From the NCBI RefSeq assembly GCF_907163085.1, contig NZ_CAJQTX010000009.1, positions 558,001-622,000 of the forward strand: a stretch of 64,000 bases of DNA. The letters are read 5' to 3'. Below the pieces are notes generated by a model. That model saw only the letters and a list, made by a program, of their open reading frames with translations, searched no databases and was not told where the DNA came from. This document shows positions 37,624 through 54,143 of this stretch, piece after piece; the stretch's first letter is position 1, and each line of letters begins with the position of its first letter. Source of the stretch: Candidatus Accumulibacter sp. ACC003 (GTDB lineage: Bacteria; Pseudomonadota; Gammaproteobacteria; Burkholderiales; Rhodocyclaceae). The translations under genes and the position numbers were made by a program.

Positions 37624-38148
37624 ATGATCCTCTCGCTGATCGCCGCAGTCGGCAGCAAGCGGGCCATTGGCCTGCGCCAGCAACTGCTCTGGCACCTGCC
37701 GGAGGACCTGCGCTACTTTCGTGAAACGACTCGCGACAAGACCGTGATCATGGGCCGAAAGACCTGGGAATCGCTGCCGGCGGCCTTTCGGCCATTGCCC
37801 AGGCGGCATAATATCGTCGTGAGCCGCGACCCGGCCCTGCTGACAGACGGCGCCACTCGCGCCGCTTCGATCGATGAAGCGATGGCAGCGGCGATCGCCA
37901 TTGCCGGCGACGCCAGCGAGGTCTTCGTGATTGGTGGCGCAGAGCTTTATCGGCAAACCTTGTCGCTGGCAAAACGGCTTTACCTGACCGAAGTCGCCGA
38001 TGACCGTCCCGGCGACTGCTTCTTCCCCGAAATCGCGCCCGGCGAGTGGCGCGAGGTGTCGCGCCGCGCCGGCAATGTCCAGCCAGCAGATGCCGCTGCG
38101 ACTGAGCGACCACCGGCCTTCGATTTCGTGGTTTACGAACGCCGCTAG
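37624..38148 (+). CDS. folA: dihydrofolate reductase
   Basis: Reduces dihydrofolate to tetrahydrofolate with NADPH. It has 174 residues with the active-site segment LLWHLPEDLRYFR (W23, acidic E27 where Escherichia coli has Asp), the NADPH motif IMGRKTWESLP and VIGGAELYRQ. It is the last housekeeping gene before the BREX operon, which converges on it from the other side with an 85-bp gap. Confidence 0.95.
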   Translation: MILSLIAAVGSKRAIGLRQQLLWHLPEDLRYFRETTRDKTVIMGRKTWESLPAAFRPLPRRHNIVVSRDPALLTDGATRAASIDEAMAAAIAIAGDASEVFVIGGAELYRQTLSLAKRLYLTEVADDRPGDCFFPEIAPGEWREVSRRAGNVQPADAAATERPPAFDFVVYERR

Positions 38149-38233
38149 AATCGCGTCGCGCGAGCGCTACCGGCCGGATTAACGCAAACGGCCATGACTC
38201 TCGTCATCGGGTGAGCTTGAATTGTCATGACCC

Positions 38234-38953
38234 TTAGTCGCGGAGCGAAACAAACTGAGTACCGGCTCCTTCAGATCGAAGCTCCAAATAGGAGCTATTC
38301 GAGACCATGTAAGCCAGCGACTGGTCGAGAACGAACGGAAAAAGCACGGCCATCGATTGCAGCGACGCTATTGACACGGACCTCCCGGCGTAGCGCAGCG
38401 TGGCTTCCACGAGCCACACTGCTACAGGCTCGTTTTCGGTTAGCGCAATCGGGGAGCAACGAATTAAGCGTTTACCTTTTTCCACTCGCTCTATAGCGCC
38501 CCAGCCAGCCTGCGACTGTAGAACCATATTGCTCATGCGATAGATACCTTCGCGCTCACCGTAAATCTCGCTCATCCGCCGATGCACCTCTGCGGAACTA
38601 CAGTCGCCCTGCAGCGCAGACAGGCGGCCCACCAGTTCGGCAACCTTGCCGAAGAACGGGTAGGTTGCGATCGCCATTCCCCAAGCCAACGCTGCGACGG
38701 AGACACTCGGATTTGCCTTGAAGATCTCGGCGCCACGATTGGCGAAATCGACAAGGTCCACTCGCGGTTCAAGCCAAAGTCGGTTCAGAACCGTACGAGT
38801 CTTCTTTCTGGCAGCCAAACCAAGGCCGGCGACATCCAGCAGATCATTCAGCTCATCGAGCTTGGCCAACCCGGCACGCACCTTCAACGCTGCAGCTACC
38901 CAGTCGAGCTGGATGAAGCGGTCGAAGCCAATTTGTGGGGCGGTCAGACTCAT
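38234..38953 (-). CDS. brxA: BREX protein BrxA-like
   Basis: A 239-residue, mostly helical protein at the end of the operon, where type 3 BREX carries brxA (the NusB-like inner-membrane/DNA-binding BrxA family). It includes NRGAEIFKANPSVSVAALAW and YGEREGIYRMSNMVLQSQ, but I identify it mainly by size and position, 4 bp after pglZ. BrxA proteins bind DNA and are needed for BREX activity in studied systems. Confidence 0.65.
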   Translation of the reverse strand: MSLTAPQIGFDRFIQLDWVAAALKVRAGLAKLDELNDLLDVAGLGLAARKKTRTVLNRLWLEPRVDLVDFANRGAEIFKANPSVSVAALAWGMAIATYPFFGKVAELVGRLSALQGDCSSAEVHRRMSEIYGEREGIYRMSNMVLQSQAGWGAIERVEKGKRLIRCSPIALTENEPVAVWLVEATLRYAGRSVSIASLQSMAVLFPFVLDQSLAYMVSNSSYLELRSEGAGTQFVSLRD

Positions 38954-38957
38954 TCAG

Positions 38958-40952
38958 TCAACTCACATACCTGACTTTGATAAAGGGCACCAACAGTTCT
39001 TCAACCGAGATGCCGCCGTGTACCACGGCAGGTTCGCCTCGCTGCATGAAGGCTGTACGTCCGCCGGCGAATAGGGCCATGAAGTTCGCAGGCAGTCCAG
39101 CGATATCCAGACGGTAGCTGCCCGGATTGGCCGCAGCCGATTCTGTGGCCAAGGCATCACTGCGGTAAGTTCGGACCCGCTCGCCGCGCATCTCGGCGGC
39201 TACACCTTGGTTGGGCCGACCCTGGCCGACCGCCTCCACATTCCCGTGGTCGGCAGTCAGGTAGACGTTGAAGCCCTTGTCGAGCAGCAGCGAGAACAGA
39301 CGATCGACGAAACCCGTCTCACACCAGCCCTCGATTTGGGTGGCGATGCCACGTTTGCCGAGCACCGAACCATGCACGATCTCATCCACGGTGTCGACCA
39401 CGATGCCAGCGATCTTGATCAACGGTTCAGACAGGCCCGCGTCCAGATCAGCCAATTGGTCGATACGCTTGATGCCCTTGCGGTATAGGACCTCATTGAC
39501 GCGCAAGCCTTGGTCCTGCCAGAACCGGGACCACTGGTTCGGCTCTGGTGAAGTTGTGTCGATCGTGTCCGCGAACTCTCGTGGTTTGAGCCCTGAGAAC
39601 AGCGCCTGTCGGGACACCGACGTCAATGTCGGCAGCCAGGCAAAACAAGCGCTCTCGTCGAAGCCGAGCTTCGGTGTGCGTCTGGCCAGAGACTCCCGGA
39701 TCTGGACCCACTGGTCGACGGCAAGGCCGTCGAACACCAGTAGTGCGATCTTGCTCTCGCCAGAGCTGCGTCGCATGGAAAGAAAGCGCGGCACGTGGTG
39801 AACCATGACCGGACCCTTCGCCACGGGCAGGGATGGCAAGTCAGCGTAGTGCTTGGTTACCCACTCCCGCAAGCGCTCATCGCTAGCGAGTTGCAGCTCG
39901 CTGATCAGGGTCTTCAGCCCTTCGGCACGAGCCGAGTCCAAGCCGTGGAAGCGGGCGATGACCTCACCCAAGCGTCGGGCCAGGTTGGCCCAGTCGCGGC
40001 ATGAGGATTCCAGCGTTGGCAGTGACTGGAGAATGCCCTTGATGCCCTCCGCTACGAGGTTGCGCAGTGCCAACGGGTCTCGCACGATGCCGGCCTTCGC
40101 CCACTCCGGAATGCGGGCAGGCAGACCCTGAACGGCAAGCGGGTGGAGCAGCCCATCCAGGAACATCGAGTCGATGATTACCCGCACGTCCGGGTGCTCA
40201 AACGGCACTTCTGCGGTAGCCACAAGATCCGTCGGCCTAGGCTCCCCGGTACGTATCCCGGTCACGCCAAGGCGCGACAGGTAGCGATACCATGCATCCT
40301 GGATCACGCGAAGTAAGGCGCTTTTCGACCCGAACAGTTCGCCGATCGGCAAACCCTTGAACTCCGCATGCTCGCCAAGCACATGGGCCACATGCGCAGC
40401 CAGGACCGCCGGCAAAGGGGAATCACGGTAGTGCAGTCGCAACAACTCGCGCCACAGGTCCTCGGGCCGCGAAATCAGATGCGGGCTGATCTTGAAGATG
40501 TGCGTCAGGATGAACTCTTTGGTCGCCAATTCACCGAGTGCCTGTGGTGCGTGCTTGGCCTGCGCAGCGAACAGCGCCTCATGGTGTTCACTGCCGATCT
40601 GCCGAACGACTGAGTAGCTGAGTTTCGGGAACAGGTCGGCAAGACTCAGGCTCACGCGACGCGCTTGCCTGAGGTAGTCCCAGGGCAGATCACTCGTGTT
40701 GGTGCCGCGCAGGTGCAGCACAAGTGACCTGGCTGGCGCGGTGTCCCCACGGTCCCATGCGCAGCGATAGCGATCTTCATACTCAGCACGGAACGCGACC
40801 GAGTCTTCGAAGGGCATCAGTTCGAAGCCACGCTCGCGCAGGCTTGAAAGTAGCTGCTCATCCAACAGCACATCGTCGGGGTCGGCGGCGACCCACAAAC
40901 GGGCCAGGTCGGCCGGAAACTCCTTGAGGATGCGGTCAATCCATGGGCTCAT
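38958..40952 (-). CDS. pglZ: BREX-3 alkaline-phosphatase superfamily protein PglZ
   Basis: A 664-residue PglZ protein, the hallmark of BREX. The C-terminal half holds the alkaline-phosphatase-like core: ALLVFDGLAVDQW (metal/nucleophile strand, about 405), then TLTSVSRQALFSGL and VYLTADHGNVEAVGQG (metal-binding Asp/His). PglZ is required for phage exclusion; some have nuclease or phosphatase activity. It starts in a 4-bp ATGA overlap with the helicase gene and is followed after 4 bp by brxA. Confidence 0.9.
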   Translation of the reverse strand: MSPWIDRILKEFPADLARLWVAADPDDVLLDEQLLSSLRERGFELMPFEDSVAFRAEYEDRYRCAWDRGDTAPARSLVLHLRGTNTSDLPWDYLRQARRVSLSLADLFPKLSYSVVRQIGSEHHEALFAAQAKHAPQALGELATKEFILTHIFKISPHLISRPEDLWRELLRLHYRDSPLPAVLAAHVAHVLGEHAEFKGLPIGELFGSKSALLRVIQDAWYRYLSRLGVTGIRTGEPRPTDLVATAEVPFEHPDVRVIIDSMFLDGLLHPLAVQGLPARIPEWAKAGIVRDPLALRNLVAEGIKGILQSLPTLESSCRDWANLARRLGEVIARFHGLDSARAEGLKTLISELQLASDERLREWVTKHYADLPSLPVAKGPVMVHHVPRFLSMRRSSGESKIALLVFDGLAVDQWVQIRESLARRTPKLGFDESACFAWLPTLTSVSRQALFSGLKPREFADTIDTTSPEPNQWSRFWQDQGLRVNEVLYRKGIKRIDQLADLDAGLSEPLIKIAGIVVDTVDEIVHGSVLGKRGIATQIEGWCETGFVDRLFSLLLDKGFNVYLTADHGNVEAVGQGRPNQGVAAEMRGERVRTYRSDALATESAAANPGSYRLDIAGLPANFMALFAGGRTAFMQRGEPAVVHGGISVEELLVPFIKVRYVS

Positions 40953-43780
40953 ATCGAACCCACCCGAAGCATCATCACCGCGTTGAGATCCGGCACGCAG
41001 GCATCTGCATCGTCCAATGCCGTCATGCGCGTCTGGTGCTCGGCATCCAGCCGCTTACGGCGATGCTCGCGAACGGCTGGCAAGCCAATTCGACCAATGG
41101 CCTGATAACGGGCGTCATAGGCGTACTTGGCGCGCTCTCGATCTTCCTTCAGCCGCGAGCGGTGCTCCTCGAGCAGTTCAGAGAACAAGCTCTCACCTTG
41201 AGTCTTGGCAGCAGTCATGGAGGCCTCGAACCAATGCACAGCCTGCTCGCTGCTGGCGGCGCTCTTGATCTCGATCGCTTCAGTCAACAGCAGATTCCAG
41301 ATGCGCCTGGCCGTGGGTACAAAGGTTCGCCCGTCGTCCGTTGCGAAAACCGGCAGGAAGCGCTTGCGGCTGAGGCCCTCAGCGGCAAGGCTGATCTCCC
41401 AAAGCGACCAGACACCCTGCACCGTCTCAGGCAAGCCGGTGATCTTGACGAACGGCAGCGGTTGCCCGATCACGCAGCGTGGCAGTTCGCTGATCACAGC
41501 TCTGGCGCGAGGGTCCTCCAACGTGACCCATTCCCAATCGGGGTTCTGCTCCGCGGTCCTGGCGTCGAAGCAAACCTGCGTCGATTCGCTGCCGTCGTCC
41601 CACTTGATGCGCCATGCGTCGCCTTTCTTCACGGCACTGCCGCCGTGGGCCGTAAGACCTGTGGTGATGGCACGTTCCAGCCAGAACTGCGCTGGGTGGT
41701 CGCGCCATTTGCGGGCCTCAATAGCATCCAGCGTATGGGCATCTGCCAGCAAGTCGGTATTCTGTCGCTCGTCGGCGACCTTGTCGCGGACCTGGGTGAT
41801 CACGGCGTCGCACGCCTTTTCGATCGAATCCGGATCCTGCAGACCCTGCACGAACAGCTCGTCGAAGATCGGCTCAGCTTCGACCGAGTCCATCACGTCA
41901 GATGCCTTGTCCACGCCGAACTCTTGCGCGATGACTTCAAGCTTGCTTTCCAGTACCTGGCGGACACGGTGCTCGACAGTGTCTTCAAGGACAAAGTTGA
42001 TGGCGCGCACCACATGGCGCTGGCCGATGCGGTCCACGCGGCCGATACGCTGCTCGATTCGCATCGGATTCCACGGCATGTCGAAATTGACGACGACGTG
42101 ACAGAACTGCAGGTTCAAGCCTTCACCACCAGCATCAGTTGAGACGAGAACCCGGACGTCGCGCGAAAAGTCCTGTTGCGCCTTAGCGCGCGTATCGAGA
42201 TTCATGCTGCCGTTGAGCAGGGTCACCGAGAAGCCACGGATTTCCAGAAAACCCGCCAGCATTGCCTGTGTCGGCACGAACTCCGTGAAGATCAAAACCT
42301 TCATGGTTGGGTCGTTCTCTTCCTGCTGCAGCTTGTAGATCAGTTCCAACAGGGCTTCGGCCTTGGCGTCCGTGCCTTGGGCTTCGGTTTCGCGGGCCAG
42401 AGTCAATAGCAGGTCAACCTCGGCCTTCTCCTGCACCGAGCCCGACGTCCGCACAGCGATGTCCACTTGGCTCTGACCGTCCAACTCCGCCCACTCGTCC
42501 ATCTCGGTCGAATCGAACAGCGATGCCTGGGGCTGGGGTTCATCGAGCAGGGCTTGCCGCTTCTCCAACGTGGTTCGAATGGCAGCGGTGCTGGACGTCA
42601 CCAGCCGCTGCATCAGGATCATCAAGAAACCGATGTGCCGCTGCTTGGCCGCCAATGCTCGATTGTAGCCATGGCGCACGTAGTCGGTGACCGCCTCATA
42701 CAGCCGTTGCTGGGCGCCGTGCCGGTCTTGCCACGCCACGGCCTGGAGCCGTGTGATGCGAGGCTTGAATAGCGCCTGGCCTTCCGCATCGATGGCGTCG
42801 CGCTTCTCGGTGCGAATGACGAACGGCCGCACGCGATCACGGCTGACGCTGCCCTCATCGGGGAAGGAGTCGCGGTCGATCAACTGCATCAAACGCAGAA
42901 ACTGGTCGGTCTTGCCTTGGTGCGGCGTGGCCGACAGCAGCAGCAAGTACGGCGCTGCTTCGGCCAGTGCGGCCCCCAGCTTGTAACGCGCCACCTGGTC
43001 GGTGCTGCCGCCCATGCGGTGTGACTCGTCGATAATCACCAGATCCCACGAGGCCGCAATCAAGTCCTCGAATCGCTCGCGGTTGTAGTTGTTCAGCTGC
43101 TCCAGGCTCCAGCCTTTGCGGCCTTCGATCGGCTTAACCGAATCCAGTGAGCAGATTACCTGGTCGTGCAGCCGCCAGAGGTTTTCCTCATCCTCAGTTG
43201 CGTTGACTCGCCACTGCCGGAAGGCAGTGAGTTCGGCCGGGTCGACGAATTGCAGCTTCTCACCGAAGTGCAGCCGCATCTCGGCCTGCCACTGGCGCAC
43301 CAGCCCCTTGGGCGCCACCACCAACACGCGCTTGGCCATGCCGCGCAATTTCAGCTCGCGTAGGATCAGCCCAGCCTCGATGGTCTTGCCCAAGCCCACC
43401 TCGTCCGCCAGCAGGTAGCGGATGCGGCCACGGCTCATGGCGCGGTTGAGTGCGTAGAGCTGGTGCGGCAAAGGGACTACGCTGGACTGGATGGGCGCCA
43501 GCAAGAGCTTGTCTTCCAAGGCGTCCAGCAGCTTGGCTGCCGCTGCGGCGTGGAGGATGTGCTCGACCGTTGGCTGAATGCTGTCGAGCTTGGCCAAGTC
43601 CTGCGGTCGCGCACGTACCACCGCGTCCCTGGTGGGCAGCCAGACGCGGTAGGCGGTTTCGCCCCATATATCCTGCCTGTCCACCACACGGCAGGGCGCG
43701 GCGTGGCGCGTATGCAAGCACCAGTTGCCGACGACCCAACTCACGTCAAGGCGCTCCCACGGCGAGGCGCCGCAATCCAT
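40949..43780 (-). CDS. brxHII: SNF2/RapA-type helicase BrxHII
   Basis: A superfamily 2 ATPase matching the helicase of type 3 BREX. Motifs in order are ADEVGLGKTIEAG (Walker A), VIIDESHRMG (DEAH-like box), LLLLSATPHQGK (motif III), LIFTEFVPTQ and TDAGGEGLNLQ, then RIEQRIGRVDRIGQ (motif VI). The start is uncertain. The frame is open to 43855, which would overlap the upstream DUF4276 gene by 110 bp; ATG 43780 overlaps by 35 bp; and GTG 43744, two bases after that gene's stop with GGGAG upstream, is also credible. The N-terminal SWVVGNW region is conserved-looking, so all three give complete motor domains. Confidence 0.88.
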   Translation of the reverse strand: MDCGASPWERLDVSWVVGNWCLHTRHAAPCRVVDRQDIWGETAYRVWLPTRDAVVRARPQDLAKLDSIQPTVEHILHAAAAAKLLDALEDKLLLAPIQSSVVPLPHQLYALNRAMSRGRIRYLLADEVGLGKTIEAGLILRELKLRGMAKRVLVVAPKGLVRQWQAEMRLHFGEKLQFVDPAELTAFRQWRVNATEDEENLWRLHDQVICSLDSVKPIEGRKGWSLEQLNNYNRERFEDLIAASWDLVIIDESHRMGGSTDQVARYKLGAALAEAAPYLLLLSATPHQGKTDQFLRLMQLIDRDSFPDEGSVSRDRVRPFVIRTEKRDAIDAEGQALFKPRITRLQAVAWQDRHGAQQRLYEAVTDYVRHGYNRALAAKQRHIGFLMILMQRLVTSSTAAIRTTLEKRQALLDEPQPQASLFDSTEMDEWAELDGQSQVDIAVRTSGSVQEKAEVDLLLTLARETEAQGTDAKAEALLELIYKLQQEENDPTMKVLIFTEFVPTQAMLAGFLEIRGFSVTLLNGSMNLDTRAKAQQDFSRDVRVLVSTDAGGEGLNLQFCHVVVNFDMPWNPMRIEQRIGRVDRIGQRHVVRAINFVLEDTVEHRVRQVLESKLEVIAQEFGVDKASDVMDSVEAEPIFDELFVQGLQDPDSIEKACDAVITQVRDKVADERQNTDLLADAHTLDAIEARKWRDHPAQFWLERAITTGLTAHGGSAVKKGDAWRIKWDDGSESTQVCFDARTAEQNPDWEWVTLEDPRARAVISELPRCVIGQPLPFVKITGLPETVQGVWSLWEISLAAEGLSRKRFLPVFATDDGRTFVPTARRIWNLLLTEAIEIKSAASSEQAVHWFEASMTAAKTQGESLFSELLEEHRSRLKEDRERAKYAYDARYQAIGRIGLPAVREHRRKRLDAEHQTRMTALDDADACVPDLNAVMMLRVGSI

Positions 43781-44405
43781 CCCGCAGTTTTCCAAAACTG
43801 GGAGAGAGGTTCCGTTCCGGATCCATGAACGGACCAATCCGATCGGCCCATTCATGCTTTACCTGCCCCGGCAATGGCCAGCCGGCTTTCTTTATCGCCG
43901 CCGATCCGCCTGAATGCACGGCATCGGCGAGCAGCTCCCACGTATCACATGCGCTGTCTTGAAGATACTTGCCAAGCACATCCAGTTTGGCACGTGGATA
44001 GGCCGCCAACAAAGCATCCCGGTCACCCAAATACCAGGCTTCGATTTCCTCGATCGCGAGCCTGAACAGCGTATTGGGCGCTGGGCTGCAGGCTGCGGCG
44101 GCCAATTCCAGTTCGCCCAGGAAGGTAGCACAGTCGCGTTTGTCAGTATCGAGCACGACCACAACGGCATCGACTCCTGGCGTCTTGCCATAGCCCCGCA
44201 ACAGCTTTGGCAACTGATCAAGCAGGATTCGCTTCGCGGGATCAGCTTTCGTCACCAGGCCTTGCGGAATTCTGCCGATGCCTTTGTAGGCATGTAAACG
44301 CCAGCTATGCGGCTCGCCTTGGGGTCCCAGCAGCCGAGGTAGCAACACTCGCAGCAAGGTCTCCCCTGAACTGTCCTCGACCAAAATCTCGATGTGCATG
44401 CTCAC
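43746..44405 (-). CDS. DUF4276 family protein, TOPRIM-like putative nuclease
   Basis: A 219-residue protein recognised as DUF4276-like. The N-terminal MSMHIEILVEDSSGETLL puts an invariant-looking Glu (E10) after the first strand, and VVVVLDTDKRD (D86, D88) provides the DxD, a layout like TOPRIM nuclease domains of OLD and PARIS AriB proteins. A further acidic IEEIEAWYLGD follows. It overlaps the AAA ATPase stop by 4 bp, so the two are made together. An inferred role is a toxic DNA/RNA-cutting effector released or activated by the ATPase. TOPRIM membership is inferred from motifs only. Confidence 0.7.
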   Translation of the reverse strand: MSMHIEILVEDSSGETLLRVLLPRLLGPQGEPHSWRLHAYKGIGRIPQGLVTKADPAKRILLDQLPKLLRGYGKTPGVDAVVVVLDTDKRDCATFLGELELAAAACSPAPNTLFRLAIEEIEAWYLGDRDALLAAYPRAKLDVLGKYLQDSACDTWELLADAVHSGGSAAIKKAGWPLPGQVKHEWADRIGPFMDPERNLSPSFGKLRDGLRRLAVGAP

Positions 44406-45631
44406 CTCGCGTCGAGATAGTCGCTATACCAAAGGCCACCCAAAGGTAAGCCTTCAGCCACGAGGTTATTCACATCTACCAACTCGGAGACGCGACGCAC
44501 GGTGGAATAGCCATCCGTGCCTTTCTCCAGGATCCACACCTCTTCAGGTGCCAGCGCGTCAACAAAGTAGGGCTGGTGCGTGGTTACGAAGATCTGTGGT
44601 GCGTTCTTCTTGCCAGTGGCATGCAACCGGAACTCCTGGGCCAACGCCTCCAACAGCTTGTGATAGAGGCCGTTCTCTGGCTCTTCGATGCAAATGAACG
44701 GTGGCGGGTCAGGGTCTTCCAACAACAGCAGGTAAGCAAAAACTTTCAGCGTGCCATCTGACATCTGCTGGGCGAAGAATGGGTCGCCAAAAGCGCCATC
44801 GTTAAAGCGTAGCAACACGCGTTTGTCTTCAGTCACCTGCGTGTCGATACTGGCAATCCCGGGAATTTTGGCGGCAATGCGTTCGAGGATGGATTTGAAT
44901 CGCGCTTTGTGCTCGCGCTCCATGAACTGCACAACGTTGCCAATGTTATCGCCGTGGATGTTCAAATGCCGCTGCGGGCCAGCGCTCGGCAGACTACGCG
45001 CCGCATCCGGGTAGAAGTAAGAGAGATACCAGCCTTTGAGGAAGTCTCGAAAGCGCTTGATACGCGGATGCTCCTTGAGGGTGCCCAGGGTGGCGATGCC
45101 GAGTTGCCGTGTGTCGGTCAGTTCGACGGGGGTCTGGGCACGATCCTCCTCGCCTTCAAGCTCAACGGCTTCTTCACCCGCCCATACAGTGCCCTTGCCG
45201 TGGTGCAGTCGCAGAAAGGGGTACGGCCGGCCGTGCTTCTGGCCCTTGCGACGCTGCTTGAGCAGCTCGGCTTCGACAAAAGGCCTACCCGATGAGTCCA
45301 GCGCAATCGCCAATTCATAGGTGATCGGCCGCTCATTGGGCGCTTCGCGGTAATAGATTTCAAACCGGATAGGCTCATCTATCCCCAATGAACGAAGACG
45401 ATCAAATCCCCCTCGTTGTTTCATGTCGCAGGCGCTTTCCACATCGGCAGACAAACAATCCGCAACGAACCCGAAGGCATCGAACAAGGTGCTCTTGCCC
45501 ACGCCGTTCTTGCCAATAACCACAGCGAAAGGCGTCAATGGCTCCCCGGCTTGCTGACCGGAAAGCTTGCCCAGCGTCACGTCGCGCAATGCACGATAGT
45601 TCTGTACCCGAAACCCTTCGATGACAGCCAT
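44402..45631 (-). CDS. AAA15/OLD-like ABC-type ATPase
   Basis: A 409-residue ATPase of the AAA_21/AAA15 class. Walker A is GKNGVGKST (40-48), the signature is QQMSDGTLKVFAYLLLL, Walker B is FICIEEPENGL and the switch histidine is in FVTTHQPYFVDAL. The large middle insertion (about 90-250) is typical of SMC/Rad50-like phage-defence ATPases. Unlike OLD proteins it has no fused TOPRIM domain; that part is apparently supplied by the next gene. It begins directly after the pglX stop. It is probably a sensor or scaffold ATPase (inference from PARIS AriA). Confidence 0.82.
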   Translation of the reverse strand: MAVIEGFRVQNYRALRDVTLGKLSGQQAGEPLTPFAVVIGKNGVGKSTLFDAFGFVADCLSADVESACDMKQRGGFDRLRSLGIDEPIRFEIYYREAPNERPITYELAIALDSSGRPFVEAELLKQRRKGQKHGRPYPFLRLHHGKGTVWAGEEAVELEGEEDRAQTPVELTDTRQLGIATLGTLKEHPRIKRFRDFLKGWYLSYFYPDAARSLPSAGPQRHLNIHGDNIGNVVQFMEREHKARFKSILERIAAKIPGIASIDTQVTEDKRVLLRFNDGAFGDPFFAQQMSDGTLKVFAYLLLLEDPDPPPFICIEEPENGLYHKLLEALAQEFRLHATGKKNAPQIFVTTHQPYFVDALAPEEVWILEKGTDGYSTVRRVSELVDVNNLVAEGLPLGGLWYSDYLDAR

Positions 45632-48433
45632 CTATCTGTCCTCCATGCGGGTAAGCGCCTGGTCGTACCAGAGCAGCAGTTTCTCGTCTTCCTGCAGGGC
45701 CTCTTCCGGAACTTTCTGCGCGACGGCGATGATGGTCGCGTAGTCCCGGTTCCCCCACGCGTGCTTGAAACCGGTGCGCATGGCTTCAAGCCGGAAGGTT
45801 TTCAGGCGGCGACCAGTAAAGGAACGGTAGGTCTCAAACTCCTTGAGTAGCGCCCTATCCCTGATCATTTCCAGGTCACGCGCCTTGCTCGGGTCGGGCA
45901 CATACCAGCGGTCAGTCGCCTTGGCTTTCAGGCGAGGGTCAGACTTTGCCAGATTGCGGAACTCCTGCCAATTCGTCGAGAGATAGCTGTGAATCTGCGA
46001 AGGAATCTCAAAAGCGTCCTTGCCTTTGGGGTCGTAGCAGAGGAAGTTGCTTTCCAGCAAATATGAGAGTTCGGGCTTGGCCTCGTGCTTCTTCCAGCCG
46101 GCCCCCAGTTGTTTGATGAACTCGGGATGAATTTCCTGATAGGTCGAGGGCTTTTTCTTCAGGAAGTCGGACAGCCAGTCGATAGCGGAGCGTTCATCGG
46201 CGATAAACATTTCCATCTGCGGCGCTTTGGTGGTTTGCATCCGCTTCTTGTCGTATTCACTGACCTGCTCGGGCAGGAAGACCATGCCATCCCGTTCCGC
46301 AAAGCGCTGTGACAGACCACCCTGGAATTCCTGGCTGGAGAGCGGTACCGGGAAGCTATGCCGGACAAACCAGGCCACCAGCCGGTCGAAAATAATGCGC
46401 GGATCGCGCTCGGCGACGAACTCGATTTGCCCATTCTTGAGCTTTACGGTTGGCAGGTATTTCAGGTGAGTGCGGACAAAATCCCAAGCCGACTCCTCGC
46501 TGCCACCCTCCTTGGCGAAGCGCTCTTCCATGCCACCGTTGGGCTTATAAGCGGAGATTACTAGGTCTTGCTTGACAGACGTTGTATTCGTCACGGCGTT
46601 GAAGCTACCTTGCTTCTTGTCGAGGGCCGAGACGTTGGCAACCACAAAGCCAGCTTCCTGGAGAGCGGTTTGGATAGCGTTCCAGACAGTTGACTTGGTA
46701 TTCGAAAATTCAACCGTCATCCATCGGCCAGGCTTGAGAATTCGGAATGCCTCCTGAAAGCAGCGGGTCATCAAATGGCGATAGTTCCCTATATCTTTTT
46801 TCTGCGTTTTGTTCTCAATTGCTTCGTGCTGGATGTTCGTATAGACCTTCAGCCATGCCTCCCAAAGAAAGTTCAGTTCTGAATACATCAGGTTAGAACC
46901 GAATGGAGGATCTAGAAAAATGTAGTCAACCTGCGCGCCCTCAGCATATAGATCAGTTGCTGAAGAAGTTGATATGAAAGTGCACCCTGATCCGCAACTT
47001 ATAATTCCTCGCTTTGTTGCGGCGAGACGGCTTTCGAGTATATTCAGCCAGTTTTGCTCACCAGAAACGGAGGGAAGATAAAGTGTGCCGGCTGTGTGAG
47101 GTTTCATTGGTCCGGTATCTTTCTGAATCCACCGAAGCGGTAAGAAGCGAGCTGTCTTTAGACCCACAGTGTATCCGCCAAGAAGAGCTAGTCTAGTAAG
47201 GGGCAAACGTGATTTTTGATACATTGCCGCAAAGGCGGTTAGGTTCCGACGCGTATAAAGATGGTGAACATGCGAAAGACCGATTCTCAGAGGCTCACCA
47301 GTCTTATCCCCTGCTGGAATAAGGTCTGTTGGAAGTTCGAGGCCAATCTTTCTCGATTCAATCCTTTCGATGACATTTAGGTCAAAGGTGTCCGGCGTCT
47401 TCTCGAATCTTTTCTTGCCAACATTATAATTAATAAGGACAGGTACTTGCTTTGCTTGCCTCACCGTCGTATTTATCTCGATGTCAAACTTTGTCACCCA
47501 TGCGCGATCCAGATTCCGTTTTGTCACTTCAGATGAGCAATGCGGACACGCAAACTCATCGCGAACCTGACCAGCGACCTTGTCTACAGCAGCGCTCCAA
47601 AATACAACCTCGCCTGCACAGTAAGGGCAGATAAATACGTCTGACCAGACGGTGTAGTTGATCCGCCCCACCGTTGTGCCATCACTGTGAAATGTTTCAT
47701 ACATCCAGCCATATTCAGATTCCACCTGAAACAGTATTGATTTAGCGTCCTTTTCAAACTCATAGACATCCCCCGGAGAGTTGTAATTGGAGGCAATAAA
47801 GGTCGCAGCGGGCGAAAGATCATTGAGAATCGCCGTTCGTGCCCCGATCTTTGAAAACGGTTTCCAAATATCCACGCCATTTTCCTTTTCGGACGCAAGG
47901 ATGGTTCCATCCGCCTCGACTCTATAACCGAGCGATTGCACTACTGATCTGTCAGCGCAAAGCTGAGCTGCAACCCCGGTCATGCCCGTCCCACAGAATC
48001 CATCGAACACCACATCGCCCGGCTGCGTGTAATGAAGGATGTACCGCATGATGGCCTTATGCGGCACCTTGGTGTGGTAGCTATGGGCGTTGTAGATCGG
48101 GTCGTTCTTGCCCTCGCTCACATCCGTCGCAAACGGCTCTTTGTTATACGGGATCGATGGGTCATAGGGCTTGCCGTAATGCTTGATGAAATCCTCAATG
48201 AAGGGATTCGGGCAGGCGGTGTAATAGGGCGGATCGGACAGCGCCAGAATGTCCTCGTCGGTGCCGATGGGAAATCCTTCGATCTCGTGAAAGGCTGGCT
48301 CTTTCAGCTTTTCGCGAAGGATCACCAGGTAGTGCCCACGCCGGGCTTCGTCGTTTGGGAATGTCTGGCCGAGACATTCCACTGGGCCGGATGGCTTAGG
48401 CTCCTCGGCGAACAGGGAGTGGGAGGTTGTCAT
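45632..48433 (-). CDS. pglX: BREX-3 adenine-specific DNA methyltransferase PglX (PglXI)
   Basis: A 933-residue N6-adenine methyltransferase that marks host DNA in BREX. The catalytic DPPY (67-70, SDPPYY) precedes the SAM motif FDGFCGTG (143-150), a beta-class motif order. A second FLDPPFGSNLMYSEL lies near residue 500. Between about residues 260 and 310 two CxxC pairs (CPYCAGE and CPHCSSE) suggest a zinc ribbon. The stretch 46.7-48.0 kb is visibly richer in A/T than the surrounding chromosome, a sign of horizontal origin. It overlaps the AlbA_2 gene by 4 bp at its start. Confidence 0.9.
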   Translation of the reverse strand: MTTSHSLFAEEPKPSGPVECLGQTFPNDEARRGHYLVILREKLKEPAFHEIEGFPIGTDEDILALSDPPYYTACPNPFIEDFIKHYGKPYDPSIPYNKEPFATDVSEGKNDPIYNAHSYHTKVPHKAIMRYILHYTQPGDVVFDGFCGTGMTGVAAQLCADRSVVQSLGYRVEADGTILASEKENGVDIWKPFSKIGARTAILNDLSPAATFIASNYNSPGDVYEFEKDAKSILFQVESEYGWMYETFHSDGTTVGRINYTVWSDVFICPYCAGEVVFWSAAVDKVAGQVRDEFACPHCSSEVTKRNLDRAWVTKFDIEINTTVRQAKQVPVLINYNVGKKRFEKTPDTFDLNVIERIESRKIGLELPTDLIPAGDKTGEPLRIGLSHVHHLYTRRNLTAFAAMYQKSRLPLTRLALLGGYTVGLKTARFLPLRWIQKDTGPMKPHTAGTLYLPSVSGEQNWLNILESRLAATKRGIISCGSGCTFISTSSATDLYAEGAQVDYIFLDPPFGSNLMYSELNFLWEAWLKVYTNIQHEAIENKTQKKDIGNYRHLMTRCFQEAFRILKPGRWMTVEFSNTKSTVWNAIQTALQEAGFVVANVSALDKKQGSFNAVTNTTSVKQDLVISAYKPNGGMEERFAKEGGSEESAWDFVRTHLKYLPTVKLKNGQIEFVAERDPRIIFDRLVAWFVRHSFPVPLSSQEFQGGLSQRFAERDGMVFLPEQVSEYDKKRMQTTKAPQMEMFIADERSAIDWLSDFLKKKPSTYQEIHPEFIKQLGAGWKKHEAKPELSYLLESNFLCYDPKGKDAFEIPSQIHSYLSTNWQEFRNLAKSDPRLKAKATDRWYVPDPSKARDLEMIRDRALLKEFETYRSFTGRRLKTFRLEAMRTGFKHAWGNRDYATIIAVAQKVPEEALQEDEKLLLWYDQALTRMEDR

Positions 48434-50295
48434 TGTTCTGGTTCCTGTTCGGTTGCGACACCAGCTTGCCCGTGCATCGCCTTGAGTTTTACCCCGACAT
48501 CTGTGAGCACGTATTGCTGCTTGGGGGAGCGTGGCTTGTCAGGGAGGGTCAGGCGCAGCACGCCGCCGGCCAGCAGTGGCTCCAGATGAGTCGTTACAAA
48601 GTGCGGGCGATGCTTGAAGCCCGTGTGGGTCATAAATTCCGCCATCGAACGAGGCACGTCGGCAAAGCCGATGAGCCGCCACTGCATGTCGGACAAGCGA
48701 TCAAGTGACCGATCAAGCTCGCCTGCACCTACGCCAGCTTGATCGGTAGCTTGATCGGTACTCTTTTCGCCGCCAAGTTCTGCTGCAACGTGTTGATTTT
48801 CTGGTGGAACGCTGGGCTTTCCGGCCAAGAAGTGAGGTCGCAAATGCTCGGCCAGGCCGAATACGTTGCCGGTTTCTCCCTGCGCCACCAGCAAGGCTTG
48901 TACGGTAAGCCGCTGGACAAGCTGGCGGGCGTCCGTACCGGAAAGGCCGGTGAGCGCCTTCACGTCGGCAATGTCAATCTGGCCCTTGCGGGTCAGGTAA
49001 GCGAAGACATCGGCTTCCTGCCCGGAGAGGCTCACACCCAAGCTGGCCTGTGCCAGAAGCTGGGCTTCGGTAATGAGTTTTTCCTTGCGCAGACGCAAGC
49101 GGAAGCTTTTTTCGGCCTTGTGGTTCTCGATTTCCGGTGGCATGTAACCCAGCCTCCGCCAGCCGTCGAAGATGGCGCGCACGCCGGTGCCGCCCTGGTC
49201 GGATAGGCCGATACGACGGAAGGCGTTGACGATACTGGGGTTGCGAACCTCCTTGTCGCCGGGGTCGAGCAGTTGCTCGCGCGAGCCGAAGGCGTCACCG
49301 GGATTGAAGAACTCGGTCTGGTCTCGGAAGAAGCGAATGACAGGCACGCGGGTGGTGTCGCCAAAGTCCTGATGGATCAGCAGATTGATGGCGGCTTCGC
49401 GGAAGGAGATGTAGTCCGGCGGATCGTCGTCACGGCGCAAAGTGCTGGCATCCACGGCAAAGGGGCGCTCGCTGTGGCGGAAGTAGAAATCGACGATGGA
49501 CTGCCACGCCTTGATGAGATTGTCTTCGACGGTAAGGCGGTCGGCCCAGCGCACGGCGGAGTCGTAGTCAGCGCTGGCGTTGCGGTAGAACTGCACGTCC
49601 GTCACCATGCGCGGCAGCACCTGGCGGACGTATTCGCCGCTGCCCAACACCAGAATGGCGGCGCGGGTGGGGCGCAGCACGCCGCCTTGCTCAACCAGAA
49701 AGCCCCAGTTCCGCAGGAAGGTGGTGTCGTCAGCCGCCGTATCCTTGCCGGGGTTGCTGGCGGCGAAACGGGTGCGATACCAGCGCACGGAGGGTTCGTC
49801 AAAGCAACGGCTGGTATCAACATCCAGCGGTTCGGCGTCGTAGCGAATGTTTGATGCGTCGCGGATGAAGCGCAGCAGTTCGTCGCGCGTGCAGGTGTCG
49901 TCGCGTCCACCACGGCGGATGTATGCCTTGTGCGGTGTGCGATCAATGAAAGCGGGTTTTTCGTTGCGTTTAGCCTCGGGCACATAGAAGGCCAGAACCG
50001 TGCCTTCAGCCAAGGAATGAACTGATCCATTGATCGGCAGGAATACGCTGATCTTGTTCTGATCACGTACCCAGCCGAGAAAAGTGTTCTGCACTTCGTC
50101 GGCATTGGTCACTCCGGTAATGGTGAAGGAGCCGTTGGCCTGCTTGACGCCAAATACCAAGTGCCCGCCCGCCGTGTTGGCGAAGGCGCTGACGGTTTCC
50201 AGCGAATCCTTGGGCGCGGCCCACGCCGCTTCCTTGAATTCGATGTCGCTCCACTCAATCGACTGGAGGCGTGCCTGCAATTCTTTTCTATCCAT
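48430..50295 (-). CDS. AlbA_2 (Schlafen-type) ATP-binding protein
   Basis: A 621-residue protein. The N-terminal Schlafen AlbA_2 domain (about 10-135) shows DIEFKEAAWAAPKDSLETVSAFANTAGG and FGVKQANGS. A middle GHKL-like ATP-binding C4 region follows (FREAAINLLIHQDFGDTTRVP, PSIVNAFRRIGLSDQGGTGV), then winged-helix segments to the C terminus. A low-complexity linker (STDQATDQ, then LDRSLDRLSD) lies near residue 530. Such proteins serve as transcription regulators or as tRNA/DNA-acting defence factors. It is not part of the standard type 3 BREX set. Its stop overlaps the pglX start, and a 104-bp gap with a palindrome precedes it. Confidence 0.78.
   Translation of the reverse strand: MDRKELQARLQSIEWSDIEFKEAAWAAPKDSLETVSAFANTAGGHLVFGVKQANGSFTITGVTNADEVQNTFLGWVRDQNKISVFLPINGSVHSLAEGTVLAFYVPEAKRNEKPAFIDRTPHKAYIRRGGRDDTCTRDELLRFIRDASNIRYDAEPLDVDTSRCFDEPSVRWYRTRFAASNPGKDTAADDTTFLRNWGFLVEQGGVLRPTRAAILVLGSGEYVRQVLPRMVTDVQFYRNASADYDSAVRWADRLTVEDNLIKAWQSIVDFYFRHSERPFAVDASTLRRDDDPPDYISFREAAINLLIHQDFGDTTRVPVIRFFRDQTEFFNPGDAFGSREQLLDPGDKEVRNPSIVNAFRRIGLSDQGGTGVRAIFDGWRRLGYMPPEIENHKAEKSFRLRLRKEKLITEAQLLAQASLGVSLSGQEADVFAYLTRKGQIDIADVKALTGLSGTDARQLVQRLTVQALLVAQGETGNVFGLAEHLRPHFLAGKPSVPPENQHVAAELGGEKSTDQATDQAGVGAGELDRSLDRLSDMQWRLIGFADVPRSMAEFMTHTGFKHRPHFVTTHLEPLLAGGVLRLTLPDKPRSPKQQYVLTDVGVKLKAMHGQAGVATEQEPEQ
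48708..48747. repeat. 12-bp perfect inverted repeat within AlbA_2 gene
   Basis: ACCGATCAAGCT (48708-48719) and AGCTTGATCGGT (48736-48747) are exact reverse complements with a 16-bp spacer. The unit GCTTGATCGGTA is repeated directly once more at 48749-48760, and a partial copy GCGATCAAGT precedes at 48697. In protein they encode the TDQ/LDRSLDR linker of the AlbA_2 protein. Confidence 0.8.
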
Positions 50296-50359
50296 GATCA
50301 GCTTGGCCCGTAGCGCTAAGGCGCCGTCCCGCCAGCGCCGACTTTCCAGTTCGGATGGT

Positions 50360-50373
50360 GCAAATGGATTTGC
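50360..50373. promoter_or_regulatory. 14-bp palindrome in the brxC-AlbA_2 gap
   Basis: GCAAATGGATTTGC is a perfect inverted repeat with 6-bp arms around GG. It lies in the only sizeable non-coding gap inside the operon, 64 bp upstream of the AlbA_2 start and just after brxC. It could be an operator for an internal promoter; the AlbA_2/winged-helix protein itself is a candidate binder (inference). Confidence 0.5.
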
Positions 50374-50399
50374 GACCGAGTTTTTGTGGCTGAATCGTT

Positions 50400-53300
50400 C
50401 TACTCCACCACGAACCGCAACTTGCTGGCGTCCTTGCCCTTGCAGCGCTCATTAAGGAAGCCTTCGAACCGCTTGCGGAGGTCTTCCGGCGTGGCTGGCG
50501 AGCCACCTTGTAGCAAGGCCTTCTTGATGTCGTCGCCACTGACGCCGATCTTCTCCAGTCCTGATAGGGCTTCCTGCACGGCGCTGACGAAATCCGGGGT
50601 CACGGGGTCGGCCAGCTTCTTGGCCGCCACAAATCTCTTGACTAGCTCTCGTGCTGATGGCTTCAGCAGGTCAAGGTTGGCCTGAATGATCGGGTCGTCC
50701 AGGTTGTCGAGCAGCGTCTGCTGCCAGCCGTCGAGAAGCCGGTCCAGTTCCTCATCCATTTGCTTGAGCACATTGGCGGCCGGCAGGAAGTCGCCTTGCT
50801 CATTGGCAGGGCGGAAGCTGCAGTGCGGGCAGTAGGGACTGGCAGTTAGCGCCGAATCCACCAGTGACGCGCAGCTCTTGAGCTTGTCGAGCTTGTCATC
50901 GAAGGCGGTGAGTTGGCTGGTGGGCATCAGCGCGATTCCTGCCAGGGCGCGCATGGCGACCAGCCGCGAGTCTTTGCGCAAGGCAGACTTGGTCTTGTCT
51001 TCGGCCACGCCCAGGCGAGCCTTGCTGTGCTGGGTAATGTAGGCGTTAAGGTAGTCCTTCTTGAGCTGGACCAGGGTCTGCCGGTAGTTGGCTACATGCT
51101 GCGCGTTGCGGTCCAGCGCGAGTTTGTCCAGGATGTCCTTGCGGGTGCTCTGCGCCTGCTTGACCCAGGGGTGATCGCTAGACAGCACCATCTCGGCTTG
51201 CGACAGATAGGCGGCTGTGCTGCCCAAGTCCGTCACCAGTGCCAGCAGCTTCTCGACGGCGGCCAAAACATCGAGGTTCCTCCTCTGAGCGTCGATGTCG
51301 TGCGAGCCAATGCGCAGGTTCTTCAGCTTGCCGACCGTGTTGTACGGCGTCAGACCCTCGGTGAAAGTCTTCAGCGCTTCCAGGCGGGTGCGCCAGTCAC
51401 GGATCTCGTCATCGGTGAGCAGAGGCTTGCCCCAGAAGGTGACCTTGCCTCGCAGATCCGTACCCGCCGTTAGGACACGGCTGACCAGCTTGGAGACGGC
51501 TTCGAGAAGCTGCTTGACGGGTTCCTCAGAGCCTTGCGCGGCCAGTTGCGCCAAGCCGGGCGACAGGCCGAGTAGTTCGAACAGTGAACGCAGAACGGCG
51601 ACGTTGATCTCTTTCGGCGCTTCGACATGCTTGAACTGCTTGAGCTCTTCGAGCCCGCGCTCGGCCAGCAGGGTGATCTTGCCGGAGTCGATCTTGTCGC
51701 CAGTGATCGCCAACACGATGTCGCCGGAGTAGACGAGGCCGCCCAGCACGGCCACCAGCAGGTCAGGCTCCAGGCGGAATTTCACCGGGTGGAAGTACTC
51801 CACGTCGGTTTGTCCGTTCAGCAGCTCGCTACGGTTCAGCACCTGGCCATGCCCCTTGGCCTTCAGGCGGCTCAGTACTTCTTGAGCGTAGCGTGATCGG
51901 CCTGGCTCGATGCGGTCACCGTCCAGCATCTCCAAGGCGTCGAGCACGGCATTGGCGTCTTTGGTGCGGGTGCCGCCGGCCAGTGCCTTCAACGCATTAC
52001 TCACCAGTTGCTTGCGGTTGGACTCGGTGACCAGCACCGGGAACGTGGGGTACTCGGGCGAGACTTCTGCAAACTGCTGGTTGAGCGCCAGGCCAGAGAC
52101 GACGTTGACGATGTCGCGGAAGTTGGCACGTTCGTCAGAGCCCAGGCGCAGCTTGTCGCGGATGGAGACGCCCTTGGCCCAGTCCTGGAGGGTTTTGGTC
52201 TTACCCTGGCAGGTAACCTGGAACGCGGTCATCTGTTTTTCCTGTAGCCACTTGCTCATGTCGCGCAGGGCGTCCTTGGCTTTGTCCAGGTAAACGCTTT
52301 TTGCACCACCACTGGCAGTGGAGGCAAGGTCCTGCGCTGCGGCATAGAACGCCAAGTGACGCTTGATGGCATCGTCGAGACCCTTGAGTCGTATGAACAC
52401 TTCGTCCGACTTATTTCCGTCACGGAAGCGTGGCGGCTCAAAGGGCTGGATGAAGTAGATGTAGAAGTCGCGTTCGGGCTGGGCGGTGGGTCGATCGTTG
52501 GGTGCTCCGAAGAACAGATAACCGTTGCGATCGACACGGCGGTCTTGCCATTCGATCTGGTACTGCCAGATCTGGTGGCCCGTCACGTAGTTGTTCTCGT
52601 CAGTACGCTCCATCAACTGCTTAATAGCGCCGTAGTAGGCACGGTCCAGCACATCGTCAGACAAGGCCTCGGCACGCTTGTCGATCTGTGCGTCGTAGTC
52701 GACGTCCTTTTTCAGGTCGAGGTAGTACTGCTCGGTGTCCGGGGCCTTGGAGATGAACTGGCCGTTGACCGTCTTGACGATCTCCCGCAGGGTGGTCTGC
52801 ACAGCGGTGAGCAGGTCGTCGGCTGGGTCACCTCCCAGGTCTTCAATGCCGGGTTGGTACAAGCAAAGTGTGTCTCGCAGCTCGGCAGCGGTTGGCCCGA
52901 CCGGGACGTAGATGTCGCCGCCTGTGGTTAGCCGATGCACCGACAGGCCTGCGATCACGCGCTGCGCCATCGGCTTGTACGCCGGGCGGACGAAGGCCTT
53001 CAGCACGCGTTCAGCCAGGACTTCAGACACCTTCAGGACGGGGCCGATACTGGGGTCGGAGCGCAGCACCGAGTTGGAAGTCACGGTCTCCCAAAACTTG
53101 TCGTAGCCGATCAATCCTGGGCGATCGCTGGGAACTTCGTCATTCAGTACGGCTTGAATCTGGTCGCGCAAGGTGACCAGGGCGCCGCGCTTCTCAGTGA
53201 AGATCAGCCGCTCGAAGGTACCGATGTACTCGGGGTGGACAGGGAACAGCCGCACGTACTCGTCCATGCGCTCATTCATCGAGCTGTAGAACTTGGCAAA

Positions 53301-54125
53301 CCTGGTGAGGTAGGTCCGGATCTTGTTCTGCTGGTCAGTCGTCTTCTTCAGCAGGCGCTCGGCGACCACGAAGCTGACGTCTTGCCGAGCCAGAAGCACC
53401 TGGGTGAATCGGTCTTTCACACGACGCAGGCTATCGGCGACGTGCTGGAAACGGTTGCTATCGAAGATGGCTTCCTGCACGCCGGCAACGAAGCGGAAGC
53501 GCAGGTGCTTGCTGACTTCACCGATCTCGCGCAGGAAGGACAGATCCAGAACCAGATCGTGATCTTTGCGCGACCGCAGGTAGTCAAGAAACTCGTCGAC
53601 CACCAGCAGCACGCCGTGGTTGGGGTGAACCTCGGTGAACGCGGCCATCATCTCCTCGAACGCCGCTTTGTTGTTGACCACCTTGTCGGCCGCCGGGAAC
53701 GAGTAGCTGACGCCGTTCTTTTCAAGGAAGACCTCAAGCTCCTGGGTGATGATGTCCCGCAGCGACATCTGGCTGGATATCTCGATGCGGTGGACCTTGA
53801 ACTTGCCCGCGATCTTTCCCGCGGCTTCGGCAACCTTGGGGTGACGGATCATGGGCTGGTAGGTCGCATCCTCGGCCACAAGAGATAGCACCGACATCAA
53901 GTGCGACTTACCGGTGCCGTAGTTGCCAACCACCAGCACGCCCATGTGGTCGACGGACTCGTCGAAGGAGAGCTGCGAAATCATCTGCTTGGCGATCCGC
54001 TCGGCCATGTCGTTGGACATGACGTAGGTCGACACGAGCTTCTTGGCCTCGTCGGGTCGATTGGCATCGAGCAGTTGTATGACCGATTCGATCGGTTCGA
54101 ATTGAATGAGATCGCCGTAGCGCAT
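50400..54125 (-). CDS. brxC: BREX P-loop ATPase BrxC
   Basis: A 1241-residue AAA+ ATPase, the large motor-like core protein of BREX. Walker A is GNYGTGKS (67-74), Walker B is VLLVVDEFLDYL (about 165), and arginine-rich KHLRFRFVAGVQEA follows. The remaining ~1000 residues are helical with a late CPHC-type zinc-binding pair (YCPHCSFRP). The start has GAGAG 8 nt upstream and lies 18 bp after brxF. The size and motif order fit BrxC/PglY. Confidence 0.9.
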   Translation of the reverse strand: MRYGDLIQFEPIESVIQLLDANRPDEAKKLVSTYVMSNDMAERIAKQMISQLSFDESVDHMGVLVVGNYGTGKSHLMSVLSLVAEDATYQPMIRHPKVAEAAGKIAGKFKVHRIEISSQMSLRDIITQELEVFLEKNGVSYSFPAADKVVNNKAAFEEMMAAFTEVHPNHGVLLVVDEFLDYLRSRKDHDLVLDLSFLREIGEVSKHLRFRFVAGVQEAIFDSNRFQHVADSLRRVKDRFTQVLLARQDVSFVVAERLLKKTTDQQNKIRTYLTRFAKFYSSMNERMDEYVRLFPVHPEYIGTFERLIFTEKRGALVTLRDQIQAVLNDEVPSDRPGLIGYDKFWETVTSNSVLRSDPSIGPVLKVSEVLAERVLKAFVRPAYKPMAQRVIAGLSVHRLTTGGDIYVPVGPTAAELRDTLCLYQPGIEDLGGDPADDLLTAVQTTLREIVKTVNGQFISKAPDTEQYYLDLKKDVDYDAQIDKRAEALSDDVLDRAYYGAIKQLMERTDENNYVTGHQIWQYQIEWQDRRVDRNGYLFFGAPNDRPTAQPERDFYIYFIQPFEPPRFRDGNKSDEVFIRLKGLDDAIKRHLAFYAAAQDLASTASGGAKSVYLDKAKDALRDMSKWLQEKQMTAFQVTCQGKTKTLQDWAKGVSIRDKLRLGSDERANFRDIVNVVSGLALNQQFAEVSPEYPTFPVLVTESNRKQLVSNALKALAGGTRTKDANAVLDALEMLDGDRIEPGRSRYAQEVLSRLKAKGHGQVLNRSELLNGQTDVEYFHPVKFRLEPDLLVAVLGGLVYSGDIVLAITGDKIDSGKITLLAERGLEELKQFKHVEAPKEINVAVLRSLFELLGLSPGLAQLAAQGSEEPVKQLLEAVSKLVSRVLTAGTDLRGKVTFWGKPLLTDDEIRDWRTRLEALKTFTEGLTPYNTVGKLKNLRIGSHDIDAQRRNLDVLAAVEKLLALVTDLGSTAAYLSQAEMVLSSDHPWVKQAQSTRKDILDKLALDRNAQHVANYRQTLVQLKKDYLNAYITQHSKARLGVAEDKTKSALRKDSRLVAMRALAGIALMPTSQLTAFDDKLDKLKSCASLVDSALTASPYCPHCSFRPANEQGDFLPAANVLKQMDEELDRLLDGWQQTLLDNLDDPIIQANLDLLKPSARELVKRFVAAKKLADPVTPDFVSAVQEALSGLEKIGVSGDDIKKALLQGGSPATPEDLRKRFEGFLNERCKGKDASKLRFVVE

Positions 54126-54143
54126 GGGTTGCTCTCTTCCCAG

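What the first reader, a model, noticed from the sequence alone, without database searches (positions are those of the whole stretch)
43746..45631. PARIS-like ATPase + TOPRIM-type pair embedded inside a BREX-3 operon
Seen: an AAA15-type ATPase (complete Walker A, signature, Walker B and H-switch) is followed in an ATGA overlap by a DUF4276 protein with a Glu after strand 1 and a DxD, the TOPRIM acidic pattern. Known: PARIS pairs an AAA15 ATPase (AriA) with a DUF4435 TOPRIM effector (AriB) that fires when a phage blocks host defence. Inference: this is a different TOPRIM family in the same two-gene plan, placed between pglX and the helicase so that it is co-expressed with BREX, possibly as a backup triggered by anti-BREX proteins such as Ocr. 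I cannot tell whether this combination is already described.
Basis: partly seen in the sequence, partly recalled or inferred. Interest (0 to 1): 0.72.

Follow-up and report, generated by a model that had tools for sequence, protein, structure and literature searches.

The report
HEC-01 defence pair inside BREX-3
Two tightly joined genes, an ATP-driven sensor and a probable nuclease, sit inside a bacterial anti-phage operon; the pair is already catalogued as a candidate defence module that comes and goes between many genomic places, so it is a tidy example of a known kind rather than a new system.

The parts
44402..45631 (-). HEC-01A: OLD/ABC-type ATPase, 409 aa, putative infection sensor
   Evidence: PADLOC PDLC04182 637 bits; AAA_21 141.7 bits; ABC motifs 73 of 73 except T350 at 70 of 73
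45494..45514 (-). Walker A of the ATPase (G40-K46)
   Evidence: sequence; G40, N42, G43, G45, K46 invariant
43746..44405 (-). HEC-01B: DUF4276 protein, 219 aa, TOPRIM-like putative nuclease effector; GTG start overlapping the ATPase stop (GTGA)
44376..44378 (-). codon of Glu10, the TOPRIM glutamate after strand 1
   Evidence: Glu in 71 of 71 filled rows; corresponds by order to E400 of BpOLD
44142..44150 (-). codons of Asp86-x-Asp88, the TOPRIM DxD
   Evidence: Asp in 72 of 72 at both; third strand ends at residue 86 in the model; correspond by order to D455/D457 of BpOLD
45632..48433 (-). pglXI, BREX-3 methyltransferase; stop codon abuts the ATPase start
   Evidence: PDLC02541 1387 bits; junction
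40949..43744 (-). brxHII helicase; start probably GTG at about 43744
   Evidence: PDLC02500 1416 bits, matched from residue 41 of the longer ORF; sequence
38958..40952 (-). BREX-3 pglZ
   Evidence: NF033449 723 bits
38234..38953 (-). brxA
   Evidence: PDLC02444 234 bits
48430..50295 (-). Schlafen AlbA_2 protein, second embedded accessory gene, between brxC and pglX
   Evidence: PF04326, PF13749, PF21247 over cut-off
50400..54125 (-). brxC (DUF6079)
   Evidence: PF19557 1895 bits; BrxC PDLC02482 1769 bits
54144..54614 (-). brxF
   Evidence: NF033453 165 bits

Best explanation
The pair is a HEC-01 module: a mobile, self-sufficient two-gene candidate anti-phage system, here carried as cargo in the pglX-brxHII junction of a BREX-3 operon and probably co-translated with it. 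Shown: gene identity, tight coupling of the two genes, a TOPRIM-like predicted fold with an invariant acidic set and lysine, repeated occurrence outside BREX, and turnover in the BREX-3 slot. Inferred: the OLD-type ABC ATPase dimerises on ATP, holds or licenses the DUF4276 protein, senses some phage-made product or DNA state, and unleashes the TOPRIM nuclease on nucleic acid (tRNA or DNA, not known which), stopping cell growth. Being in the operon, it would be expressed whenever BREX is, and so act as a second, suicidal layer. The trigger is unknown.
For: HEC-01A/B model matches. ATPase directly upstream of DUF4276 in 42 of 42 relatives and in 29 of 29 loci from other genomes that the HEC-01B search returned. 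TOPRIM-like model and invariant E10, D86, D88, E120, E122, K183, in the order of BpOLD's E400, D455, D457, E508, K562; profile comparison with the OLD TOPRIM region keeps that register (weak). Autonomy: 32 of 42 loci have at least 1 kb on both sides and no BREX-3 gene, 5 of 42 have BREX-3 genes, 5 of 42 have short flanks and none seen. Mobile carriers: a conjugative plasmid and a prophage-like region between antitermination and lysis genes. Operon junctions of 0, -4 and about +1 nt. Slot turnover. Related HEC-04 (ABC ATPase fused to TOPRIM) is reported to give phage defence (passages of PMC12111858), and several HECs are reported active (passage of PMC12988326, citing a preprint not held here).
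Against: No test of HEC-01 itself was seen; whether the preprint behind the HEC name tested it could not be read. Foldseek itself gave no PDB match at E <= 0.001 for the DUF4276 model; the OLD match comes from the second-look aligner, on a predicted model. Sequence-profile support for TOPRIM is weak (probability 11% local, 35% global), the OLD set was cut at its own first motif, which helps the register, and with uncut OLD proteins the match went to the wrong domain. BpOLD's metal-B residue E404 has no evident counterpart. Triggering, target and even toxicity are inferred.
Confidence: 0.72

Rival explanations
1. A true anti-anti-BREX guard: the ATPase is triggered by phage inhibitors of BREX (Ocr-like DNA mimics).
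For: PARIS senses Ocr and Ocr inhibits BREX; the survey of BREX diversity proposes this for OLD-ABC/TOPRIM modules. The pair also lies 128-168 nt after a Type I HsdR in 6 of 42 loci (one cluster; 4 of its 6 members checked by family model) and after a Type III-like methyltransferase in L029, i.e. beside other restriction systems.
Against: In 30 of 42 loci no restriction gene was identified beside the pair, though most neighbours were not annotated. The PARIS of Salmonella D23580's BREX island did not respond to Ocr or Gp5. No trigger was testable here.
Confidence: 0.15
2. A part of BREX-3 itself: the pair helps BREX restriction, for example as its missing nuclease.
For: Gap-free in-operon junctions; the same place in the BREX-3 operon of a distant backbone (L083, brxHII 52% identical).
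Against: 8 of 11 BREX-3 loci found by BREX queries have an empty slot; sister backbones differ in cargo; near-identical pairs occur without BREX-3 genes nearby.
Confidence: 0.07
3. A conventional toxin-antitoxin or DNA-repair module with no phage role, kept by addiction.
For: AAA_21 carries the label 'putative AbiEii toxin, Type IV TA system'; carriage on plasmids.
Against: Recurrent placement in BREX-3, beside restriction genes and in a prophage-like region; HEC-04 and PARIS, of similar make-up, are anti-phage.
Confidence: 0.06

Closest known systems
HEC-01 (Hma-embedded candidate 01, PADLOC-DB 2.0.0)
   Same: Same two proteins: HEC-01A model 637 bits on the ATPase, HEC-01B model 306 bits on DUF4276.
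   Different: Here embedded in BREX-3, not in Hma (the expansion of the name was read). No paper of the library holds the word DUF4276, so its TOPRIM reading was not seen in print; the preprint that introduced HECs is not held.
PARIS (AriA + AriB)
   Same: Separate OLD-type ATPase and TOPRIM-like effector genes; AAA_21/AAA_15 scores pass the published PARIS thresholds; true PARIS can also sit inside a BREX island.
   Different: Effector is DUF4276, with no DUF4435 or AriB match at E <= 0.05. PADLOC's best-matching AriA model (304 positions, the length of Pfam AAA_21) also matched other OLD-type ATPases here, so it is not specific. Trigger unknown.
Class 2 OLD nucleases / Gabija GajA
   Same: Closest solved fold for DUF4276: C-terminal TOPRIM plus helical region of BpOLD and XccOLD; matching order of acidic residues and the late lysine.
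   Different: OLD/GajA is one polypeptide; here two genes. BpOLD's E404 has no clear counterpart (the equivalent position is Gly14).
OLD-ABC/TOPRIM and other back-up effectors in BREX (Rakesh and Krishnan 2026, PMC12839542)
   Same: Same idea and setting: OLD-ABC plus nuclease within BREX operons; Schlafen also listed (section 35 read).
   Different: The word DUF4276 is not in its main text.

Membership tests
HEC-01 | HEC-01A ATPase and HEC-01B effector models both match | tested here: met
   637 and 306 bits
HEC-01 | adjacent two-gene cassette | tested here: met
   4-nt GTGA overlap; ATPase adjacent in 42 of 42 relatives
HEC-01 | anti-phage activity | not testable with these tools
   needs phage assays
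PARIS | ATPase over AAA_15 (32) or AAA_21 (27) threshold | tested here: met
   51.2 and 141.7 bits; thresholds from PMC9122126
PARIS | DUF4435 effector (AriB) at 27 bits or more | tested here: not met
   Only DUF4276 matches at E <= 0.05 in Pfam; no AriB model among the 12 PADLOC matches; profile comparison with two DUF4435 proteins 0.2% (very small set)
PARIS | activation by Ocr and tRNA cleavage | not testable with these tools
   needs experiments
TOPRIM (OLD type) | TOPRIM fold | tested here: met
TOPRIM (OLD type) | Glu after strand 1 and DxD, second acidic site, Lys | tested here: met
   E10 71/71, D86 72/72, D88 72/72, E120 72/72, E122 72/72, K183 70/70 filled rows; residue roles from PMC6755086; by order and profile only, no coordinate superposition; E404 not matched
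Class 2 OLD / GajA | ATPase and TOPRIM fused in one protein | tested here: not met
   two ORFs
Gabija | UvrD-like GajB next to GajA | tested here: not met
   next gene is the SNF2-type brxHII
BREX-3 | brxF, brxC, pglXI, brxHII, BREX-3 pglZ, brxA in order | tested here: met

The most novel reading that the evidence does not exclude
The pglX-brxHII junction of BREX-3 is a dedicated exchange slot for OLD-ABC sensor/effector dyads (HEC-01, HEC-02, HEC-03 and an unnamed one, sometimes stacked), and the ATPases of these dyads share one job: reading out the state of the restriction machinery (or the phage's attack on it) rather than any one phage protein, with the effector freely swapped.
Probability: 0.12. 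Interest if true: 0.62.

Novelty: new member of a known kind. Interest (0 to 1): 0.33.

Why it matters
It gives a concrete structural reading (a Class-2-OLD-like TOPRIM site) to DUF4276, the partner gene of a catalogued defence candidate, and shows that the pair is an autonomous module repeatedly exchanged with one slot in BREX-3. That makes the question 'do embedded modules guard their host system or merely ride with it?' directly testable, using naturally empty, HEC-01- and HEC-02-filled versions of related BREX-3 operons.

Tried and rejected
Considered and set aside: membership in PARIS (effector family fails), Gabija (no fusion, no GajB) and AbiL (the AbiLi model gives 91 bits against 637 for HEC-01A, and no AbiLii model is among the effector's 12 matches). 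The apparent brxHII matches in L001 and L008 are an artefact of overlap: the first 38 codons of the longest brxHII ORF lie in another frame of the DUF4276 gene; with that part cut off they vanish. A promoter-like site inside the DUF4276 gene (44298-44269) is one of 2 found where shuffles give 5.0, so chance (sigma-70 consensus only).
Full report
What is there. The - strand between 54.6 and 38.2 kb is a BREX-3 operon: brxF, brxC (DUF6079), a Schlafen AlbA_2 protein, pglXI, the ATPase, the DUF4276 protein, brxHII, BREX-3 pglZ, brxA. A sigma-70 consensus scan of 38000-55200 found 2 promoter-like sites where shuffles give 5.0. The four genes therefore look translationally coupled; transcription itself was not measured.

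Identity. The ATPase matches PADLOC HEC-01A (PDLC04182, 637 bits) and the DUF4276 protein HEC-01B (PDLC04205, 306 bits), so the pair is a catalogued candidate. Two PADLOC models carry the opposite letter (PDLC04144, named HEC-01B, matches the ATPase; PDLC04143, named HEC-01A, matches DUF4276), which looks like a labelling slip. HEC means Hma-embedded candidate. Several HECs are said to have shown antiviral activity (passage), and HEC-04, a single ABC ATPase-TOPRIM protein, to defend against T4 and T5 (passages); whether HEC-01 was tested I could not read, since the preprint is not held. 'DUF4276' occurs in 0 papers of the library. Of 5 papers holding the string HEC-01, one is about phage defence, and it lists HEC-01 among the systems of Desulfovibrio piger strains; the other four were judged by title.

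Autonomy. A scan of the genome collection with the DUF4276 protein gave 42 loci (this tool finds close relatives only). All 42 have the ATPase directly upstream (L004's contig starts inside it). BREX-3 core genes are present in 5 of 42 (L004, L013, L014, L018, L040); 32 of 42 have at least 1 kb on both sides and none; 5 of 42 have short flanks and none. The HEC-01B model matched in 46 of 398 genomes of the phylum, the window's own among them; loci were returned for 29 of the 45 others, the ATPase was adjacent in 29 of 29, and one (L046, read wider as L083) is again pglX-ATPase-DUF4276-brxHII at 52-63% identity. Fifteen wider regions from the other 28 show no BREX-3 gene. On the tree the window's nearest row is L004, a BREX-3 locus, but the rows next nearest (L002, L003, L001, L006) are not in BREX-3, and full-length ATPases 92-96% identical occur without BREX-3 genes. 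Neighbours annotated elsewhere include a Type I HsdR directly upstream in 6 of 42 loci (one cluster; 4 of 6 members checked by family model), a Type III-like methyltransferase and a DpdF-like helicase (L029), a dGTPase (L001 by model, L002 by clustering) and a ribonucleotide reductase (L025); most neighbours were not annotated. On plasmids the pair lies beside transfer genes of a conjugative Pseudomonas plasmid and between antitermination and lysis genes of a prophage-like region on a Rahnella plasmid; a remote pair in Synechocystis is annotated AAA family ATPase + DUF4276.

Exchange with BREX-3. On a 74-row tree of ATPase plus DUF4276, the 7 BREX-3 rows need 5 changes of label, at least 4 of them forced by well-supported branches; shuffled labels average 6.8 and 7 of 500 shuffles are as low, so there is some clustering (window with L004) but no single origin (quick method). 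On a 16-row tree of pglX+brxHII+pglZ, HEC-01 in the slot needs 4 changes (3 forced; one change in 0% of 200 bootstrap trees), or 5 if the HEC-02 and HEC-03 rows are counted as 'not HEC-01'; 172 of 500 shuffles are as low as 4, so the cargo does not follow the backbone measurably. L018 (HEC-01) is sister to L119 (empty; 93/88 support), L083 (HEC-01) to L080 (empty), and window plus L004 (HEC-01) to L120 (HEC-02). Among 11 BREX-3 loci reached by BREX queries with both genes readable, the pglX-brxHII junction is empty in 8 (L075, L076, L077, L080, L119, L121, L122, L123), holds HEC-01 in 1 (L083), HEC-02 in 1 (L120) and a five-gene set in 1 (L081: PHP/SMC-like Ppl, Schlafen, HEC-03B, HEC-03A, RNA ligase). 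Among loci found through the pair, L014 stacks another OLD-type ATPase with a 224-aa partner, then HEC-01, then a Schlafen, and L018 stacks HEC-01 and HEC-02. In the window's own genus, 5 of 28 genomes have a pglX relative, and none of the four other genomes (five loci) has HEC-01 in the slot.

How it most likely works. An ATP-bound OLD-type ATPase senses infection and activates a TOPRIM nuclease that kills or arrests the cell. This rests on the fold, the invariant site, strict pairing and the behaviour of PARIS, Gabija and HEC-04; none of it was measured. Co-expression with BREX-3 would make it a second layer. A PARIS embedded in the Salmonella D23580 BREX island did not respond to Ocr or Gp5, and near-identical HEC-01 pairs live away from BREX, so I give it 15%.

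Verdict. A real and well-observed feature, correctly guessed to be TOPRIM-like, but a member of a catalogued candidate system in a setting whose principle is already published. What this work adds, as far as these searches show, is the Class-2-OLD-like site of DUF4276 and the evidence for a turnover slot in BREX-3.

Noticed in passing
window 48430-50295 (-): A Schlafen AlbA_2 protein sits between brxC and pglX, a second embedded accessory gene. Schlafen-like genes occupy the same junction in L014, L075, L076, L080, L122 and L123.
   Followed up: partly
L014 6907-12447: Stacked cargo between pglX and brxHII: an OLD-type ATPase (407 aa) with a 224-aa partner in no Pfam family, then HEC-01, then a Schlafen protein.
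   Followed up: partly
L081 5587-12387: Five-gene cargo in the same BREX-3 junction: Ppl-like PHP/SMC protein, Schlafen, HEC-03B, HEC-03A and an RNA ligase; an RNA ligase among possible RNase effectors is curious.
   Followed up: no
L013 2490-6022: brxC-pglX junction holds a SIR2_2 protein and a HerA-like (DUF87) protein; L119 and L121 have genes of similar size there, not annotated.
   Followed up: no
L040 6612-11060: The pair survives, frameshifted, between remnants of pglX and brxHII: it looks like a decayed BREX-3 operon.
   Followed up: no
L015, L019, L021, L026, L028, L038, upstream of the pair: In 6 of 42 loci, five from Chlorobiaceae and one Devosia, the pair follows a Type I restriction HsdR gene by 128-168 nt: a second recurrent restriction-system setting.
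   Followed up: partly
MT836340.1 6388-7008: A 10,977-base unannotated record named Bacteriophage sp. from human faeces encodes a DUF4276 relative, 39% identical over 94%.
   Followed up: no
PADLOC-DB models PDLC04143, PDLC04144 and PDLC04146: Labels of these HEC models appear swapped: 'HEC-01A' PDLC04143 matches the effector, while 'HEC-01B' PDLC04144 and 'HEC-02B' PDLC04146 match ATPases.
   Followed up: no
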